Shown here one piece after another: positions 12,348 to 27,659 of a DNA stretch of 43,871 nucleotides. Both the position numbers and the translations under genes were made by a program. This stretch comes from a virus. The stretch lies in IMG/VR virus record IMGVR_UViG_3300020147_000015, positions 1 through 43,871 of that record; one strand, written 5' to 3'. The notes under the pieces are model-generated. The model was not told the DNA's origin, searched no databases, and worked only from the letters and a program-made list of their open reading frames with translations. Positions within the stretch are counted from its first letter, which is position 1; every line of letters begins with the position of its first letter.

Positions 12348-12520
12348 CGGCGCCGGCTCTCGTCAAATCCGCGGACCTGAAGCGAATGGCCATGATCGCC
12401 AAGCGTGAAAACGTGACCGTCTGGGTTGAGATCGACGGCCGGCGCTTTGGGGTCTCCCCAGATATACAGGATATCAACAGGCAGAAAAAGGTTGATCTCC
12501 CCGATGATTTCGCCCTCTGA
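12344..12520 (+). CDS. 58-residue protein upstream of integrase
   Basis: MTAPALVKSADLKRMAMIAK followed by NVTVWVEIDGRRFGVSPDI. This small protein type is, as I recall, repeatedly found directly before integrase genes in rhizobial prophages; a DNA-binding or excisionase-like role would fit the position but cannot be shown. The ATG overlaps the preceding stop (ATGA), and its 3' end overlaps the chosen integrase start by 17 nt. Confidence 0.65.
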   Translation: MTAPALVKSADLKRMAMIAKRENVTVWVEIDGRRFGVSPDIQDINRQKKVDLPDDFAL

Positions 12521-13607
12521 TAAGGGAATGCCGAAGCCCCTTCCCAAGCACGTCACCAAGACTATCACCCGCTATGGGAAGGTGCTTCTGTATTTCCGTA
12601 TCGACAAAGGCGCTCGGGTGAGGCTCCCCGACGATCCAGACAGCCACGAATTCGATATGGCCTATGCGGCATGCCTTGCAGGGAAACCTAAGCCACGCTC
12701 CAAATCGCCCGCAGAAGCCAGTACAATGCGATGGCTGATCGAGCGGTATATGGAAAGCGGCGCGTGGGTGACACTCGCTGACGGGACCAGAAGGCAACGC
12801 TCCAACATCTTCAAGCATGTTGTCGAGCAAAACGGCGGCGTCGAGTTCGCCAATATCCTTCCCAAGCACATTAGGAACCGCATGGACAAGATGGCGGGTA
12901 CGCCCGTCCAGGCCAACAATTACCTAAAGGCCATGAGCGGGCTGTTCTCGTGGGCCGTCAAGAATGACCACCGGCGGGATAATCCCTGCGCGGGCGTTGA
13001 AAAGCTCCCGGTCAAGTCGGATGGCTTTGAGGCATGGACGATTGAGGACGCAGCCGCATTCCGGGCGAGATGGGATGAAGGAAGCATGCAGCGGCTTGCA
13101 TTCGAGCTACTGCTGCACGTTGGAAGTCGTCGGGGGGATTTGACCGATATGGGCCGGCAGCATTTGCGCGGCAATGTCCTGTCATTCAGGACGGGCAAGA
13201 CGGGTTCGGTCGTTACCGTCGAGTTGCCTCAGTCCGTCCTCGATTTGATCGGGAAGACGGAGACGAAGGGCGATGCCCTGCACTTCATCGTGACATCGCA
13301 CGGCAAGCCGTTCAGCAAGCCAGGGTTCGGGAATTGGTTTGGAGACGCGGCCCGTAAGGCGAACGTCTTTAAGAACGCCCACGGGGTGCGGAAACTGGCT
13401 GCCACGATCGCCGCCGACGAGGGCGCCACGGCTCACGAGCTTATGGCTCAATTTGGCTGGGCAAACCCGAAACAGGCGGAAGTCTACACCAGAGGGGCCG
13501 ATCGGGCGAAGCTTGGAATCAGATCTTCGAAGCGGGTTGCCGAACGGGTGAAGAACGAAACGCCCCCAAACTCGCCACCTGAAACCCCCAAACAGTCGAC
13601 AAAATAA
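12504..13607 (+). CDS. int: Tyrosine-family site-specific integrase
   Basis: 367 residues from the ATG at 12504 (AAAGG upstream); an ATG at 12528 is the alternative. N-terminal core-binding domain followed by a catalytic domain with Arg in VGSRRGDL (R209), HGVRKLAAT (H293, R296), W319 in the FGWANP box and the nucleophile Y328 in EVYTRGAD. This set is complete for a tyrosine recombinase that integrates the phage genome at an att site. An attP-like array lies at and just after its 3' end, so gene and site form one module. Confidence 0.92.
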   Translation: MISPSDKGMPKPLPKHVTKTITRYGKVLLYFRIDKGARVRLPDDPDSHEFDMAYAACLAGKPKPRSKSPAEASTMRWLIERYMESGAWVTLADGTRRQRSNIFKHVVEQNGGVEFANILPKHIRNRMDKMAGTPVQANNYLKAMSGLFSWAVKNDHRRDNPCAGVEKLPVKSDGFEAWTIEDAAAFRARWDEGSMQRLAFELLLHVGSRRGDLTDMGRQHLRGNVLSFRTGKTGSVVTVELPQSVLDLIGKTETKGDALHFIVTSHGKPFSKPGFGNWFGDAARKANVFKNAHGVRKLAATIAADEGATAHELMAQFGWANPKQAEVYTRGADRAKLGIRSSKRVAERVKNETPPNSPPETPKQSTK

Positions 13608-14394: not shown

Positions 14395-14424
14395 GTTGCA
14401 AATTGCAACGTGCCGTGCGATAGA
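14395..14424 (+). promoter_or_regulatory. Candidate promoter and dyad before the Y RNAs
   Basis: A perfect inverted repeat GTTGCAA-A-TTGCAAC lies at 14395-14409. Its left arm supplies a -35-like TTGCAA (14396-14401), followed after 17 bases by GATAGA (14419-14424), a weak -10. The implied start, about 14431, coincides with the 5' edge of the first Y RNA-like fold. The dyad could bind a regulator, possibly the HTH protein encoded after rsr; that link is inference. Confidence 0.4.
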
Positions 14425-14430
14425 TGATTT

Positions 14431-14504
14431 GCCAATCGTGGTGAAGGTGACGGCTACTTCTTTCTGGTAGAAACGACGCCGTTTCCGCTTGTTCCCGAAT
14501 GGTT
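14431..14504 (+). ncRNA. Y RNA-like RNA 1 (compact)
   Basis: About 74 nt. Outer stem: CCAATCG-T-G (14432-14440) pairs with C-C-CGAATGG (14494-14502), seven pairs in nine. Inner stem: ACGGC (14450-14454) with GCCGT (14478-14482), then a small hairpin loop (CTAC/GTAG). Between them lie 5' TGGTGAAGGTG and 3' CGCTTGTTCC, the region corresponding to the Ro-binding helix of Y RNAs; GAAGGU and CUUG also occur at the equivalent places in human Y RNAs. No tRNA-like part. It would bind Rsr as a ring-blocking or adaptor RNA. Confidence 0.65.
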
Positions 14505-14507
14505 CAT

Positions 14508-14653
14508 AACCGCAGGCGTGGCGTAGAGTTCGGTTACTTCGCTTTGGGAGCCAGAGGTCGCGGGTTCGAATCCCGTCATCCTGATACAGGATGTAGCTCA
14601 GTTGGATAGAGCGCTGATACGTTCCGAGTTCGCTTGTTCCCGCCTGCGGTTTT
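14508..14653 (+). ncRNA. yrlA: Y RNA-like RNA 2, YrlA type with tRNA mimic
   Basis: About 146 nt. The ends pair perfectly over 11 bp (14508-14518 with 14641-14651) and end in TTTT. The Ro-binding-type strands TGGCGTAGAG and CGCTTGTTCCCG match RNA 1. The distal part is a permuted tRNA: variable-loop AGGTC (14555-14559); T-arm GCGGG-TTCGAAT-CCCGT (14560-14576); acceptor-like 7-bp stem CATCCTG/CAGGATG closed by ATA (14577-14593); TA at positions 8-9; D-arm GCTC-AGTTGGATA-GAGC (14596-14612); and CTG/CAG at the anticodon-stem position (14614-14616 with 14552-14554). YrlA RNAs of bacterial Ro loci have this organisation. Confidence 0.78.
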
Positions 14654-14678
14654 GCCATTCGGCGCTATGGAGAAAATC

Positions 14679-15980
14679 ATGCGCCTGAATACCGCAATGA
14701 ACATCCCCCGCCAGTATACGCATGAAGGTGCGCCGGCCAAATTCATCTCGCCGGAAATGCAGCTTCGCCGCTCCGTCCTGTCCTGCCTCCTTTGGGAGAA
14801 GGAGTTCTACGAGGACGGCAAGGACATTGCTTCCCGGATCCTGGAAGCCGCCGTGACCGTTGATGCTGCAACGGTCTCCGCTCTGGCGGTAGAGGCTCGC
14901 AACATTCATGGCCTTCGCCATGTCCCGCTCCTGCTGCTCACTGACCTGATCCGCCGTGGTGGGGCTGGAGTTGCAGACACGATTGCGGACACTATCCGTC
15001 GCGCCGACGAAATGGCAGAACTCGTGTCGATCTATTGGAGGGGAGGCAAGAAGCCGCTTTCCAAGCAGATGAAGCTTGGGCTGGCAAAGGCGTTCGGGAA
15101 GTTCTCGGAATATCAGCTCGCCAAGTATGATCGCGAGGGACCGGTTCGGCTGCGCGATGTTCTCTTCCTTGCCCATCCGAAGCCGGCCGACGAGGAGCAG
15201 GCGGCGCTATTCAAGCGCGTGGCTGAGCGCCGGCTTGTGGCGCCAGATACGTGGGAGGTTTCTCTGTCGGGAGGTTCCGATAAGAAGGAAACGTTCGAGC
15301 GCCTTATTCGGGAAGGAAAGCTTGGCTACCTCGCCCTGCTTCGAAACCTTCGCAACATGATGGACGCCGGTTGCGACCGACAGCTTGTGTCCGATGCCAT
15401 CGTGGCGCGGAAAGGTGCTGAGCTTGTATTCCCGTTTCGTTATGTCGCTGCGGCCCGAGCTTGCCCGCAGTTGGAGCCGGTGATCGATCAGGCGCTCTGT
15501 GAGGCTGTCGCGTCTGGCCCTCGACTGTCCGGCGTAACTGCCGTTCTTGTCGATGTTTCCGGCTCGATGGACACCAAGTTATCTGGGAAGTCGGACCTGA
15601 CGCGCCTTGATGCCGCAGCCGCTCTCGGTTCAGTCGTGAACGGGGATATTCGGGTCTTCACTTTCTCGGAGCGCGTGGTGGAGGTGCCGCCTCGCCGGGG
15701 CATGGCTGGGGTCGATGCCGTTATCAGATCACAGCCCCATTCGGGAACCTATCTCGGAGCGGCAATCGATCTGATCAATCGGCAAGTGCCGCATGATCGG
15801 CTGATCGTCATCACGGATGAACAGTCCCATGACCGGGTGACGGACCCGATCGCAAAGAAGGCCTATATGATCAATGTTGCTTCTGCAAAGAACGGCATTG
15901 GCTATGGGAAGTGGGTCCACGTTGACGGGTTCAGCGAATCCGTTATCCGCTACATCCATGAGTCCGAGAATGAGCGGTGA
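14679..15980 (+). CDS. rsr: Ro60/Rsr protein (TROVE + von Willebrand A)
   Basis: 433 residues from the ATG at 14679 (GGAGA, 6-nt spacer); an ATG at 14667 would add four residues. The N-terminal two thirds are helical TROVE repeats (FYEDGKDIASRILEAAVTVD, EARNIHGLRHVPLLLLTDLI, KLGYLALLRNLRNMMDAG), forming the ring that binds Y RNA outside and misfolded RNA ends inside. The C-terminal vWA domain keeps a complete MIDAS: D292-x-S294-x-S296 (VDVSGSM), T357 and D380. It is about 100 residues shorter than well-studied Ro proteins. In bacteria Rsr works with exoribonucleases such as PNPase in RNA decay and rRNA maturation. Two Y RNA-like RNAs lie directly upstream, and an HTH gene overlaps its end. 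Confidence 0.93.
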   Translation: MRLNTAMNIPRQYTHEGAPAKFISPEMQLRRSVLSCLLWEKEFYEDGKDIASRILEAAVTVDAATVSALAVEARNIHGLRHVPLLLLTDLIRRGGAGVADTIADTIRRADEMAELVSIYWRGGKKPLSKQMKLGLAKAFGKFSEYQLAKYDREGPVRLRDVLFLAHPKPADEEQAALFKRVAERRLVAPDTWEVSLSGGSDKKETFERLIREGKLGYLALLRNLRNMMDAGCDRQLVSDAIVARKGAELVFPFRYVAAARACPQLEPVIDQALCEAVASGPRLSGVTAVLVDVSGSMDTKLSGKSDLTRLDAAAALGSVVNGDIRVFTFSERVVEVPPRRGMAGVDAVIRSQPHSGTYLGAAIDLINRQVPHDRLIVITDEQSHDRVTDPIAKKAYMINVASAKNGIGYGKWVHVDGFSESVIRYIHESENER

Positions 15981-16206
15981 TGAACTGAAAGAGGCCGGCA
16001 TAAGGCTTTTTGGCGAGCGCGGGTGGCAATCAGCGCTTGCTGCGCATTTGGGCGTGGATAGGACCCAGATCTGGCGCTATGTGTCGAATGATAAGGTTCC
16101 GGGACCTGTGGCTGCTGCGGTTTCATGCTGGCTGAAGTCTGGAGCGCCCGTCACTTCGGCGTCTGAAGCCACGCAATTGCCTTCAGAACATCCTCATAGA
16201 ATTTGA
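15970..16206 (+). CDS. Small HTH protein coupled to rsr
   Basis: 78 residues from the ATG at 15970, overlapping the rsr stop by 11 nt. The segment RLFGERGWQSALAAHLGVDR then TQIWRYVSNDKVPGPVAAAV is a helix-turn-helix of the kind found in small alphaproteobacterial regulators. Translational coupling to rsr suggests that it controls, or is controlled with, the Ro locus. Its 3' end runs 56 nt into the convergent minus-strand gene at 16151-16405. Confidence 0.7.
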   Translation: MSGDELKEAGIRLFGERGWQSALAAHLGVDRTQIWRYVSNDKVPGPVAAAVSCWLKSGAPVTSASEATQLPSEHPHRI

Positions 16207-17703: not shown

Positions 17704-17889
17704 ATGCCGACTCAAATCATGACCCCTGAACAGTTGGGATGGACCGTAGTCAGCGAGACTGTCGAACAAGTCACCTATCGCGACACAAACGGGTTATTGC
17801 ACCCTATGCCTCGGGGAATTGATACGGTCACAGTTTTCGATGATCACGACATGGAGCCAGTAGAAGAGGCCTTGTCTTGCGAGAGGTAA
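17704..17889 (+). CDS. Small protein opening the plus-strand surface cassette
   Basis: 61 residues behind GGAGG. TPEQLGWTVVSETVEQVTYR then GIDTVTVFDDHDMEPVEEAL: small, acidic, probably beta-rich. No family recognised. It is divergent from the holin gene, so a promoter should lie in 17611-17703, where TATAGT (17663-17668) is the best -10-like sequence. Confidence 0.5.
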   Translation: MPTQIMTPEQLGWTVVSETVEQVTYRDTNGLLHPMPRGIDTVTVFDDHDMEPVEEALSCER

Positions 17890-17912
17890 GAGATACCTCC
17901 GGCCAAGTCAGC

Positions 17913-18686
17913 ATGATGGTGGCATTGCAAAGAATGATGAATGTCATGCATGCCGTTATTCTTCGCGACATTCGGAGCCGGTATTTGAACCATGCGCTCG
18001 GCTCTTTGATCCCGCCACTGATGCCGATCGCTCACGTCCTGATCCTGCTCTCGATCTATAATTTCGTAGGTCGGTCCGCCATATTCGGGGAGGACCGTTT
18101 TCTATTCTACGCGAGCGGCCTCGTGCCGGCCCTGACATTTATGTACATTTCTCGATACATGGCAGCCTCCATCTTGGCGAACAAAGGCATGCTAGCTTTC
18201 CCGGCCGTCCACCTTCTGGATATCGTCTTGGCAAGATGCTTTCTCGAATTCATAGGGATAATTCTCTCCATCGCCGTGATGTTCACCATCCTGGTATCGA
18301 TCGGCTCCGATCCAGTACCGCAGCACCCGGACCAAGCTCTTCTAGCGCTCCTGTCGATATCAATGCTTGCCCTTGGCGTTGGAATAATCGTCAGCGTGAT
18401 ATCTGCGATTTACCCCTTCTTTGCGATGATCTTTTCTCTCTCCATGATCATCGTCTACCTTAGTTCTGACGGGCCTATCTATCTGCACGTCTTCCCAGAA
18501 CAGGTGATTTATGCGGCCTCATTCAACCCTGTTTTTCATGCGGTTGAATGGATGAGGAGCGCCTATTATGTCGGCTATCCAACCCAATGGCTTGACAAGA
18601 CGTACCTTGTCATGTGGGGGATGATCTCTGTGCCAACGGGACTCCTGATGGAGAGAAGCCTGCGCCGATACGTTCTTGCTCGTTAA
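17913..18686 (+). CDS. ABC-2 type permease, Wzm/KpsM polysaccharide-export family
   Basis: 257 residues from the ATG at 17913; a TTG at 17877 is the alternative. It has the KpsM/Wzm layout: an amphipathic start (HAVILRDIRSRYLNHALGSL) and then six hydrophobic segments (IPPLMPIAHVLILLSIYNFV, GIILSIAVMFTILVSI, MLALGVGIIVSVISAIYPFF, FSLSMIIVYLSSDGPIYL and others), ending in FNPVFHAVEWMRSAYYVGY, a typical ABC-2 signature region. Such permeases export capsular or O-polysaccharide with an ATPase (KpsT/Wzt), which is absent here, so it would need the host's ATPase. It is followed by a glycosyltransferase-like gene. Confidence 0.8.
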   Translation: MMVALQRMMNVMHAVILRDIRSRYLNHALGSLIPPLMPIAHVLILLSIYNFVGRSAIFGEDRFLFYASGLVPALTFMYISRYMAASILANKGMLAFPAVHLLDIVLARCFLEFIGIILSIAVMFTILVSIGSDPVPQHPDQALLALLSISMLALGVGIIVSVISAIYPFFAMIFSLSMIIVYLSSDGPIYLHVFPEQVIYAASFNPVFHAVEWMRSAYYVGYPTQWLDKTYLVMWGMISVPTGLLMERSLRRYVLAR

Positions 18687-18696
18687 TGGAGGACTG

Positions 18697-19575
18697 ATGT
18701 CCGAAGTTCTCTACCTCAATTCCATGATGTCCGGTCTTAACAATCAGAGAATGGGCGTAGTGGGGTTGATCGTTCATGCTGCGAAAGTCGGAAAGAAGGC
18801 GGCGATCCCGTCCTATGCTGTCGATTTCGCTCCGATGGAAGGTCGAACGCCGGCAGACTATGGCCGGCTTCCGTTCGGAGAGGTGTTTGATATCGATCTT
18901 TTGGCATCCAGCGAGGCCGGAGACCACATATCCTATTCCACGCCTACAGAGGGTATCGGGCTAGATACCTGTTTTGCGATCGGGAAAACCGTTCTTGGCG
19001 AAGCATTTCAGCACAATTCCGCCCATCACCAACTAGCCCGCAACACGCTGTTATCGCTTCAGCCGACAAAAGAAACCCGCCGCCTGGCTGATGATATCGT
19101 TGAATGGCTACCAAAGAAGACATTCGCCCTTCAACTCCGCATCGAGAGAGATTGGCATATCTACCTAGAGAAAAAGTTCGGCACTACCGAGATGGACACC
19201 CCGGAGCAATTCTTTACGGTTGACCCTGGAAAGATTGCTCGGAAGGTCTCCGCCACAAACCTTGATGCTGAAGCCCTTTGGCTTTGCTGCGATGAAGCCG
19301 ACCTTGTTTTGCCCATCGACGCAGTGCGTGAGGAGTTCCGCAAGATCGGCTTGAAGTTATTCTTTAAGTCCGACCTGCCAAGGTATTTTTCTTTCCCCGA
19401 AGCTCGCCTGAAGAGGGCATTTCTTGAGCAGGCTATTTGCCAAAGGCTACCAGGGTTCATCGGGTTGAGCCTGTCGACGTTCACGCAGACACTTTGGCTT
19501 GAGAATAAATGGACCGAAAAAGGAAGCGCCCATTACGTTTATAACTCACCGGGCGCAGACCTTCTCAGGCGTTAG
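18697..19575 (+). CDS. O-fucosyltransferase-like glycosyltransferase
   Basis: 292 residues, ATG behind GGAGG and 10 nt after the permease stop. LYLNSMMSGLNNQRMGVVGL resembles the G-x-NNQ entry motif of GDP-fucose O-fucosyltransferases. FALQLRIERDWHIYL matches their central H/Q-L-R-x-E-x-D motif that binds the donor, and PGFIGLSLSTFTQTLWLEN the conserved C-terminal S-x-F/S-x region. Likely a cytoplasmic enzyme that modifies a surface polysaccharide or glycan carrier; donor and acceptor are unknown. Its stop overlaps the tail-spike stop by 4 nt on the opposite strand. Confidence 0.6.
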   Translation: MSEVLYLNSMMSGLNNQRMGVVGLIVHAAKVGKKAAIPSYAVDFAPMEGRTPADYGRLPFGEVFDIDLLASSEAGDHISYSTPTEGIGLDTCFAIGKTVLGEAFQHNSAHHQLARNTLLSLQPTKETRRLADDIVEWLPKKTFALQLRIERDWHIYLEKKFGTTEMDTPEQFFTVDPGKIARKVSATNLDAEALWLCCDEADLVLPIDAVREEFRKIGLKLFFKSDLPRYFSFPEARLKRAFLEQAICQRLPGFIGLSLSTFTQTLWLENKWTEKGSAHYVYNSPGADLLRR

Positions 19576-27275: not shown

Positions 27276-27659
27276 TTACCATTTGAATTTGAACTCGTCG
27301 GCCAGGACCCCGACCACGAATGCATCCCGGCCCTTGCCGAAGTGGGACCGCATCAGTCCCTCGATCTGGGCTCCGAGCCGTTCGGCTAGGCGAACAACGT
27401 GCGGCTGCTCTGTAATGATAGTTGCGCGTTCGCATCCCAGTTGATCGAACACATAGCGGCCCACCTCTCGAAGGAATGACCTGGGGAAGTGATGCCCTGC
27501 CACGCTAACGTGAACATCTTCACCTTCGAACATGTTGAACAGGACGCCCGAGACGATCTCGCCATCCTTTTCCAGCCCCATGACGGTGAACGGAGGAAAG
27601 AACGGCTTGCCCACCTTCTCGCTGATGAAGAGAGCCACCCGATCGTCCGTAACGATCAC
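27276..27659 (-). CDS. GNAT acetyltransferase-like protein
   Basis: 127 residues from a GTG at 27659 that overlaps the upstream stop (GTGA). The end of the strand VMGLEKDGEIVSGVLFNMFE and the block RYVFDQLGCERATIITEQPH then VVRLAERLGAQIEGLMR follow the GNAT fold. The usual R/Q-x-x-G-x-G/A acetyl-CoA loop is poorly kept (VAGHHFPRSFLREVG). Such genes are frequent among podovirus tail genes; the substrate is unknown. Confidence 0.65.
   Translation of the reverse strand: MIVTDDRVALFISEKVGKPFFPPFTVMGLEKDGEIVSGVLFNMFEGEDVHVSVAGHHFPRSFLREVGRYVFDQLGCERATIITEQPHVVRLAERLGAQIEGLMRSHFGKGRDAFVVGVLADEFKFKW

What the first reader, a model, noticed from the sequence alone, without database searches (positions are those of the whole stretch)
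14431..15980. Phage-borne Ro ribonucleoprotein: Rsr gene with two Y RNA-like RNAs
Seen: a 433-residue TROVE + vWA protein with intact MIDAS residues (D292, S294, S296, T357, D380), directly preceded by two folded RNAs with a shared helix. Known: bacterial Ro (Rsr) genes often lie next to Y RNA genes, and Ro-Y RNA complexes work with PNPase and other exonucleases in RNA decay and stress survival. Ro-like genes have been noted in some phages, including mycobacteriophages, so phage carriage alone is not new. I do not recall a described complete Ro + compact Y RNA + YrlA locus in a temperate podovirus of this kind. It may protect phage RNA, redirect host RNA turnover after infection, or give the lysogen stress resistance.
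Basis: partly seen in the sequence, partly recalled or inferred. Interest (0 to 1): 0.95.

Follow-up and report, generated by a model that had tools for sequence, protein, structure and literature searches.

The report
Phage Ro protein with tRNA-mimic Y RNAs
This temperate phage carries a small gene cassette for a bacterial version of the human Ro60 protein plus two partner RNAs; one partner is shaped like a rearranged transfer RNA that, in many relatives, even carries an anticodon loop, which may let it bait or dock enzymes that act on tRNAs.

Summary
A 433-aa TROVE+vWA (Ro60/Rsr) protein (14679-15980) is preceded by a compact Y RNA (about 14431-14504) and a YrlA-type Y RNA (about 14508-14651). 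A covariance model built from compact Y RNAs alone also recovers the stem of the window YrlA. All 17 stem pairs of the compact family show compensatory changes. Phage Ro proteins are not new: a phage Ro60 is in the PDB, PHROG 850 exists, and Y RNAs are reported in mycobacteriophages. (1) The locus is part of a cassette ending in an overlapping YdaS-like HTH gene, often with a conserved palindrome before the first Y RNA; the HTH follows rsr in 30 other loci (9 phage, 21 bacterial). (2) The YrlA is a circularly permuted tRNA; relatives often carry an anticodon arm (U33, R37, G36-G37 coupling) with many different anticodons, whereas the descriptions I could read mention only D, T and acceptor arms. 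(3) Some deposited phage "tRNAs" beside TROVE genes are these mimics. In the window itself the anticodon arm is imperfect and not the minimum-energy fold. Function is inferred: a Ro RNP whose tRNA mimic docks, or decoys, tRNA-acting enzymes.

The parts
14395..14409 (.). Palindrome GTTGCAAATTGCAAC upstream of the first Y RNA, probable operator
   Evidence: Only match in the window with up to 2 mismatches. The same or a related TGCA palindrome lies at the same place in L002, L003, L006, L008, L009, L010, L036, L048, L050, L061. Operator role is inference.
14431..14504 (+). Compact Y RNA: basal helix, GG/CC plus GAAG/CUUGUU Ro-type core, 9-bp upper helix, UACUUC
   Evidence: R1 72.7 bits at 14433-14503; covariation at 17/17 pairs in 29 sequences.
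14508..14651 (+). YrlA-type Y RNA with the Ro-type stem and a circularly permuted tRNA module
   Evidence: RF02553 54.7 bits, E 9.6e-12; stem found by R1 at 14513-14648, E 2.7e-10.
14538..14554 (+). Anticodon-arm position of the mimic: uucgc-UUUGGGA-gccag, loop identical to a real tRNA-Pro(UGG) loop
   Evidence: Un-permuted module is called a tRNA by ARAGORN in 134 of 140 joins, most often Pro(tgg); loop equals a real tRNA-Pro loop. Caveat: C.C mismatch, and an alternative hairpin is 4.6 kcal/mol better.
14560..14576 (+). T arm of the mimic
   Evidence: GCGGG-TTCGAAT-CCCGT.
14577..14593 (+). Acceptor stem CATCCTG/CAGGATG closed by the 3-nt loop AUA (no free CCA end)
   Evidence: 7 of 7 pairs.
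14594..14612 (+). D arm TAGCTCAGTTGGATAGAGC
14679..15980 (+). rsr: Ro60/Rsr TROVE + vWA protein, 433 aa
15970..16206 (+). Small YdaS-like HTH protein overlapping the end of rsr, probable autoregulator
   Evidence: Pfam YdaS 5.7e-5, below the curated cut-off; found immediately downstream of rsr in 9 viral and 21 bacterial loci.
12426..13607 (+). Integrase upstream of the cassette (context: temperate phage)
   Evidence: phrog_1 1.6e-37

Best explanation
This is a self-contained, mobile Ro ribonucleoprotein cassette in a temperate phage: probable operator/promoter, compact Y RNA, YrlA-type Y RNA, Rsr protein, HTH regulator. Rsr most likely holds both RNAs by their shared stem. The permuted tRNA body of YrlA presents a tRNA-like surface that docks a tRNA-handling partner (PNPase as in the known bacterial Ro RNP, or a tRNA-modifying or tRNA-cleaving enzyme). 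The ring is thereby steered to, or shields, structured RNA in the lysogen or the infected cell. The HTH protein probably represses the Y RNA promoter. Shown here: the parts, their fold, covariation, homology, and co-occurrence of rsr with the HTH. Inferred: RNA-protein binding, the partner enzyme, the repression, and any benefit to the phage.
For: Fold and sequence of Rsr with MIDAS residues kept. Covarying compact Y RNA family. A compact-only model detects the YrlA stem, so both RNAs share one core. Permuted tRNA module. The order Y RNA(s)-rsr recurs in unrelated phages and bacteria, and rsr plus the HTH are the only window genes found in the flanks of the other loci. Palindrome upstream of the first Y RNA in HTH-type loci, in some just after a TTGACA box. 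The known Rsr-YrlA-PNPase machine and YrlA as substrate of tRNA-modifying enzymes are reviewed in PMC8394870.
Against: No expression or binding data. The host is unknown, so no partner enzyme could be examined. The promoter scan found no sigma-70-like site in the window at the expected place. The minimum-energy fold of the whole leader pairs the 3' basal strand of the compact RNA with a repeat after YrlA instead of with its own 5' strand. Several HTH-type loci lack a recognisable palindrome.
Confidence: 0.66

Rival explanations
1. Decoy model: YrlA modules with exchangeable anticodon loops sequester anticodon nucleases or other tRNA-targeting toxins during infection or in the lysogen; Rsr stabilises the decoys.
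For: In 106 permuted modules, 44 have an anticodon arm with U33 and at least 4 of 5 pairs, against a shuffle mean of 2.6 and maximum of 8. U33 in 74, R37 in 92, A38 in 79, peaking at the tRNA register; G36-G37 coupling p = 7e-10. Anticodon-stem covariation 0.436 vs 0.231+-0.022. 21 of 56 loops equal a real tRNA loop of two genomes (column-shuffle mean 9.0, max 17). Anticodon identity is not predicted by the tRNA body (6 of 41 vs 4.3 expected) and differs among the closest relatives (Pro, Ser, Thr). Competitive inhibition of an anticodon nuclease by YrlA was proposed in PMC7790460; phage tRNAs counter such nucleases (PMC10264068, PMC11555353).
Against: Similar modules occur in many bacterial chromosomes, so the role need not be anti-defence. 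Salmonella YrlA was not cleaved by the nuclease studied (PMC7790460). In the window the anticodon arm has a C.C mismatch and is not the best fold. Counts are not corrected for phylogeny.
Confidence: 0.25
2. Plain RNA-decay role: Rsr and Y RNAs specialise host PNPase for structured RNA, as in D. radiodurans; the tRNA shape only serves PNPase docking and the anticodon arm is a relic.
For: Closest characterised system (PMC8394870, PMC7790460); same architecture.
Against: A relic would not be expected to keep U33, R37 and the 36-37 coupling across phyla; PNPase interaction untested.
Confidence: 0.35
3. Permuted tRNA genes: the YrlA modules are processed into real tRNAs, as permuted tRNA genes of algae and archaea are.
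For: Un-permuted modules are scored as tRNAs by ARAGORN.
Against: The acceptor stem is mostly closed by a short, often GNRA-like, loop with no room for a CCA end; the Ro-type stem is conserved instead.
Confidence: 0.03
4. The RNA signals are leader structures that only regulate rsr translation.
For: They lie directly 5' of rsr; the last complementary segment (CCATTCGG, 14655-14662) ends shortly before the Shine-Dalgarno-like GGAG.
Against: Relatives carry one to several tandem copies, in some phages downstream of the TROVE gene (L032, L034, L022), with Y RNA covariation.
Confidence: 0.06

Closest known systems
Bacterial Ro60/Rsr with Y RNA and PNPase (RYPER, D. radiodurans)
   Same: TROVE ring plus vWA fold (2NVO match); adjacent Y RNAs with a conserved stem
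   Different: 433 aa, shorter than the 496 residues of the 2NVO chain; HTH partner gene; PNPase link not shown
YrlA (Rfam RF02553; Salmonella rsr-yrlBA-rtcBA operon)
   Same: Ro-type stem plus permuted T arm, acceptor and D arm
   Different: Scores below the Rfam gathering score (54.7 vs 69); the family often has an anticodon arm absent from the RF02553 consensus; no rtcBA found in the phage; UACUUC core
Ro60 of Thermus phage phiLo (PDB 9L5Y, 9KOP)
   Same: Phage Ro60, best structural match
   Different: About 26% identity; its Y RNAs not examined here
TROVE proteins of Xanthomonas phages (Olaya, 10KY502B), Caulobacter phage CcrColossus, Brevundimonas phages
   Same: 57-63% identical, with arrays of Y RNAs upstream
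   Different: No copy of the window-type HTH found downstream; several YrlA with other anticodons; partly annotated as tRNA genes
Listeria phage CKA15 Rsr and putative Y RNAs (PMC12282133)
   Same: Phage Rsr with abundant nearby RNAs proposed as Y RNAs
   Different: There proposed from HHpred and transcription data, without a Y RNA model

Membership tests
Ro60/Rsr (TROVE) proteins | TROVE domain | tested here: met
   Pfam TROVE 1.7e-12; phrog_850 3e-52
Ro60/Rsr (TROVE) proteins | C-terminal vWA domain with MIDAS residues | tested here: met
   VWA_2 2e-6; D292, S294, S296, D380 invariant, T357 nearly so
Ro60/Rsr (TROVE) proteins | Overall Ro60 fold | tested here: met
   Foldseek to 9L5Y, 1YVP, 2NVO
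Ro60/Rsr (TROVE) proteins | Binds Y RNA | not testable with these tools
   needs a binding assay
Y RNA | Conserved Ro-binding-type stem with covariation, next to rsr | tested here: met
YrlA (RF02553) | Model score over the curated gathering cut-off | tested here: not met
   54.7 of 69 bits; also 0 of 22 genomes with relatives exceed it
YrlA (RF02553) | Permuted tRNA-like T, acceptor and D arms on a Y stem | tested here: met
YrlA (RF02553) | No separate anticodon arm in the consensus structure | tested here: inconclusive
   Anticodon-type arm present in many relatives; in the window imperfect; some proteobacterial YrlA have one too
rsr-rtcBA RNA repair operon | rtcB/rtcA adjacent | tested here: not met
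   None found among the 30 window ORFs scanned with PHROGs or the 10 scanned with Pfam
RYPER | YrlA or Y RNA tethers Rsr to PNPase | not testable with these tools
   host unknown; needs biochemistry

The most novel reading that the evidence does not exclude
Phage and bacterial Ro RNPs display interchangeable, anticodon-bearing permuted tRNA mimics. The anticodon loop changes on a roughly constant body, so the RNP acts as a programmable bait or docking device for tRNA-specific enzymes, such as anticodon nucleases of anti-phage defence.
Probability: 0.25. Interest if true: 0.88.

Novelty: new variant of a known kind. Interest (0 to 1): 0.62.

Why it matters
The role of bacterial Y RNAs, and why phages carry Ro, is open. 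If YrlA modules carry real anticodon loops with diverse identities, the tRNA mimicry is more complete than the reviews I could read describe, and the proposal that YrlA competes with anticodon nucleases becomes directly testable with small cassettes from phages. It also warns that some phage 'tRNA genes' beside TROVE genes are Y RNAs, which bears on counts of phage tRNAs.

Tried and rejected
Rfam gathering scan: no hit, since this YrlA group scores under the cut-off. Ordinary tRNA gene: ARAGORN finds none in the window; in relatives some native-order calls overlap permuted mimics. Whole-tRNA capture as the source of anticodon diversity: the body does not predict the anticodon (6 of 41 vs 4.3), although L003 and L004 have Pro-like bodies with a Pro loop; the reference set was small (31 tRNAs). 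The idea that full anticodon arms are phage-specific was dropped: they occur in bacterial chromosomes too. A resemblance of CGGUUACUUC to the anti-16S 3' end was dropped as probably chance, since the G-C part covaries as a helix. The primary YrlA papers (Chen 2014, Wang 2018, Sim 2018 and 2020) are not held, so whether an anticodon arm was ever described could not be checked.

Full report
Observation. The open reading frame 14679-15980 encodes a 433-aa protein with Pfam TROVE (1.7e-12) and vWA (2e-6) matches, PHROG 850 over nearly its whole length (3.3e-52), and phmmer matches to the PDB TROVE proteins 9L5Y and 9KOP (4e-27). The start codon at 14679 is supported by the MRLN start shared with relatives. 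MIDAS residues D292, S294, S296 and D380 are invariant, and T357 nearly so, in 35 relatives. An AlphaFold2 model (pLDDT 84.7) matches phage phiLo Ro60, vertebrate Ro60 and D. radiodurans Rsr.

The RNAs. Rfam at gathering score finds nothing. In a permissive search the YrlA model matches 14530-14646 with 54.7 bits, E 9.6e-12. Comparing the upstream regions of relatives showed a compact Y RNA family. An alignment of 29 compact RNAs has 88.2% of cells paired, compensatory changes at all 17 pairs, and a covariation score of 0.732 against 0.211+-0.021 in shuffles and at most 0.214 when slid. The covariance model R1 built from these compact RNAs only finds the window compact RNA (72.7 bits) and, with the tRNA part as an insertion, the window YrlA at 14513-14648 (49.4 bits, E 2.7e-10); it gives 64 matches in all over 31 sources, all on the + strand of the oriented loci. 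So the two RNAs do share one stem. The core (GGUGAAG / CGCUUGUUCC followed by GGUUACUUC) also resembles the vertebrate Y RNA core as I remember it; that comparison was not tested.

The YrlA is a circularly permuted tRNA. Its order is anticodon-arm position, variable loop, T arm, acceptor 3' strand, 3-nt loop, acceptor 5' strand, D arm, return to the Y stem. That YrlA superposes on tRNA with a circular permutation is known (PMC11472068), and YrlA is described as mimicking the D, T and acceptor arms (PMC8394870). Joining the halves in tRNA order lets ARAGORN call a tRNA in 134 of 140 joins for the window, most often Pro(tgg); the other, chance candidates in the window give 0 of 140. Across 106 permuted modules chosen only by T arm, acceptor and D arm, 44 have U33 and at least four of five anticodon-stem pairs at the exact class I register, against a shuffle mean of 2.6 and maximum of 8. 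U33 (74), R37 (92) and A38 (79) peak at that register, and G36 goes with G37 (13:1 versus 2:40, p = 7e-10), as expected of real tRNA loops. Stem covariation is 0.436 against 0.231+-0.022. Of 56 loops, 21 equal a real tRNA loop from two genomes; column shuffles give a mean of 9 and a maximum of 17. More than 20 anticodons occur. Within the window's near relatives the loop is Pro (window, L003, L004), Ser (L002, L003, L005, L006) or Thr (L004, L008). The tRNA body does not predict the anticodon (6 of 41 versus 4.3 expected), so the loop appears to change on a generic body. These counts are not corrected for relatedness, and only a part of the modules have the arm. For the window itself the arm is uucgc-UUUGGGA-gccag with a C.C mismatch; an alternative hairpin CUUUGG-GAG-CCAGAG is favoured by 4.6 kcal/mol. 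The anticodon claim therefore holds for the family and only tentatively for this RNA. The arm is not phage-specific.

Cassette. Of the window genes compared, only rsr and the next ORF, 15970-16206 (YdaS-like HTH, Pfam 5.7e-5, below cut-off), have relatives in the fetched flanks of other loci. The HTH sits right behind rsr in 9 viral and 21 bacterial loci. The palindrome GTTGCAAATTGCAAC (14395-14409) is the only such site in the window; the same or a similar palindrome precedes the first Y RNA in about ten HTH-type loci, in L009, L010, L048 and L050 just after a TTGACA box. I infer that the HTH protein controls the cassette. Relatives sit both in phages and in chromosomes (near gyrB in L041 and Memo/TctC genes in L055). 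The window carries an integrase, Bet/RecT, NinB/Orf, a portal protein and an amidase, consistent with a temperate tailed phage; short-tailed morphology is plausible but was not proved.

How it most likely works. Rsr holds both RNAs by the shared stem, and the tRNA-like surface of YrlA docks a tRNA-handling protein. In the known system that partner is PNPase (PMC8394870, PMC7790460). Decoying of anticodon nucleases was proposed for YrlA in PMC7790460 and would suit a phage, since phage tRNAs are reported counters to such defences (PMC10264068, PMC11555353). Binding, partner and benefit are inference.

Known or new. Ro and Y RNAs in phages are known (mycobacteriophages, as cited in PMC12282133; jumbo phages, PMC7824862; PDB 9L5Y). 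New as far as I could check: the HTH-palindrome cassette, and the widespread anticodon-bearing variant of YrlA that Rfam's cut-off misses (21 of 22 genomes match, none over the cut-off). The primary YrlA papers could not be read here, so priority is uncertain.

Noticed in passing
L034 4412-4495 and 4506-4583 (Bacteroides phage crAss001, downstream of TROVE gp96): Compact Y RNA candidates downstream of the crAssphage TROVE gene (36.5 bits and a weaker 17.2 bits).
   Followed up: partly
L027 5822-5889 (annotated tRNA-Thr), L029 4766-4840 (annotated tRNA-Ser): Deposited phage 'tRNA' genes next to TROVE coincide with YrlA mimics; ARAGORN's native-order calls overlap 15 permuted modules, of which at least one (L062) may be an ordinary tRNA.
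   Followed up: partly
window 14495-14503 and 14655-14662: CCGAATGG at the 3' end of the compact Y RNA is perfectly complementary to CCATTCGG after YrlA (also in L002), so the compact RNA's own basal stem and a longer YrlA stem exclude each other. Processing or switching is unexplained.
   Followed up: partly
L098 2360-2761: Five compact Y RNAs in tandem within about 400 nt of a gammaproteobacterial contig.
   Followed up: no
YrlA modules: Loops with U36-A37 (ANN codons, t6A-type tRNAs) make 33 of 56 and G36-G37 (m1G-type) 13 of 56; the excess of these two modification classes is unexplained.
   Followed up: no
L030 4683, L031 4821, L053 3716: Some YrlA have Leu/Ser-type D arms (TGGCGGA...) and apparently a long variable arm, that is class II tRNA mimics.
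   Followed up: no
window 17877-18683 (+), 18676-19572 (+), 27279-27659 (-): ABC-2 transporter-like (Pfam 1.3e-5, just under cut-off), weak O-FucT-like (0.0093) and an acyltransferase (phrog_4470), possible surface-modifying morons.
   Followed up: no
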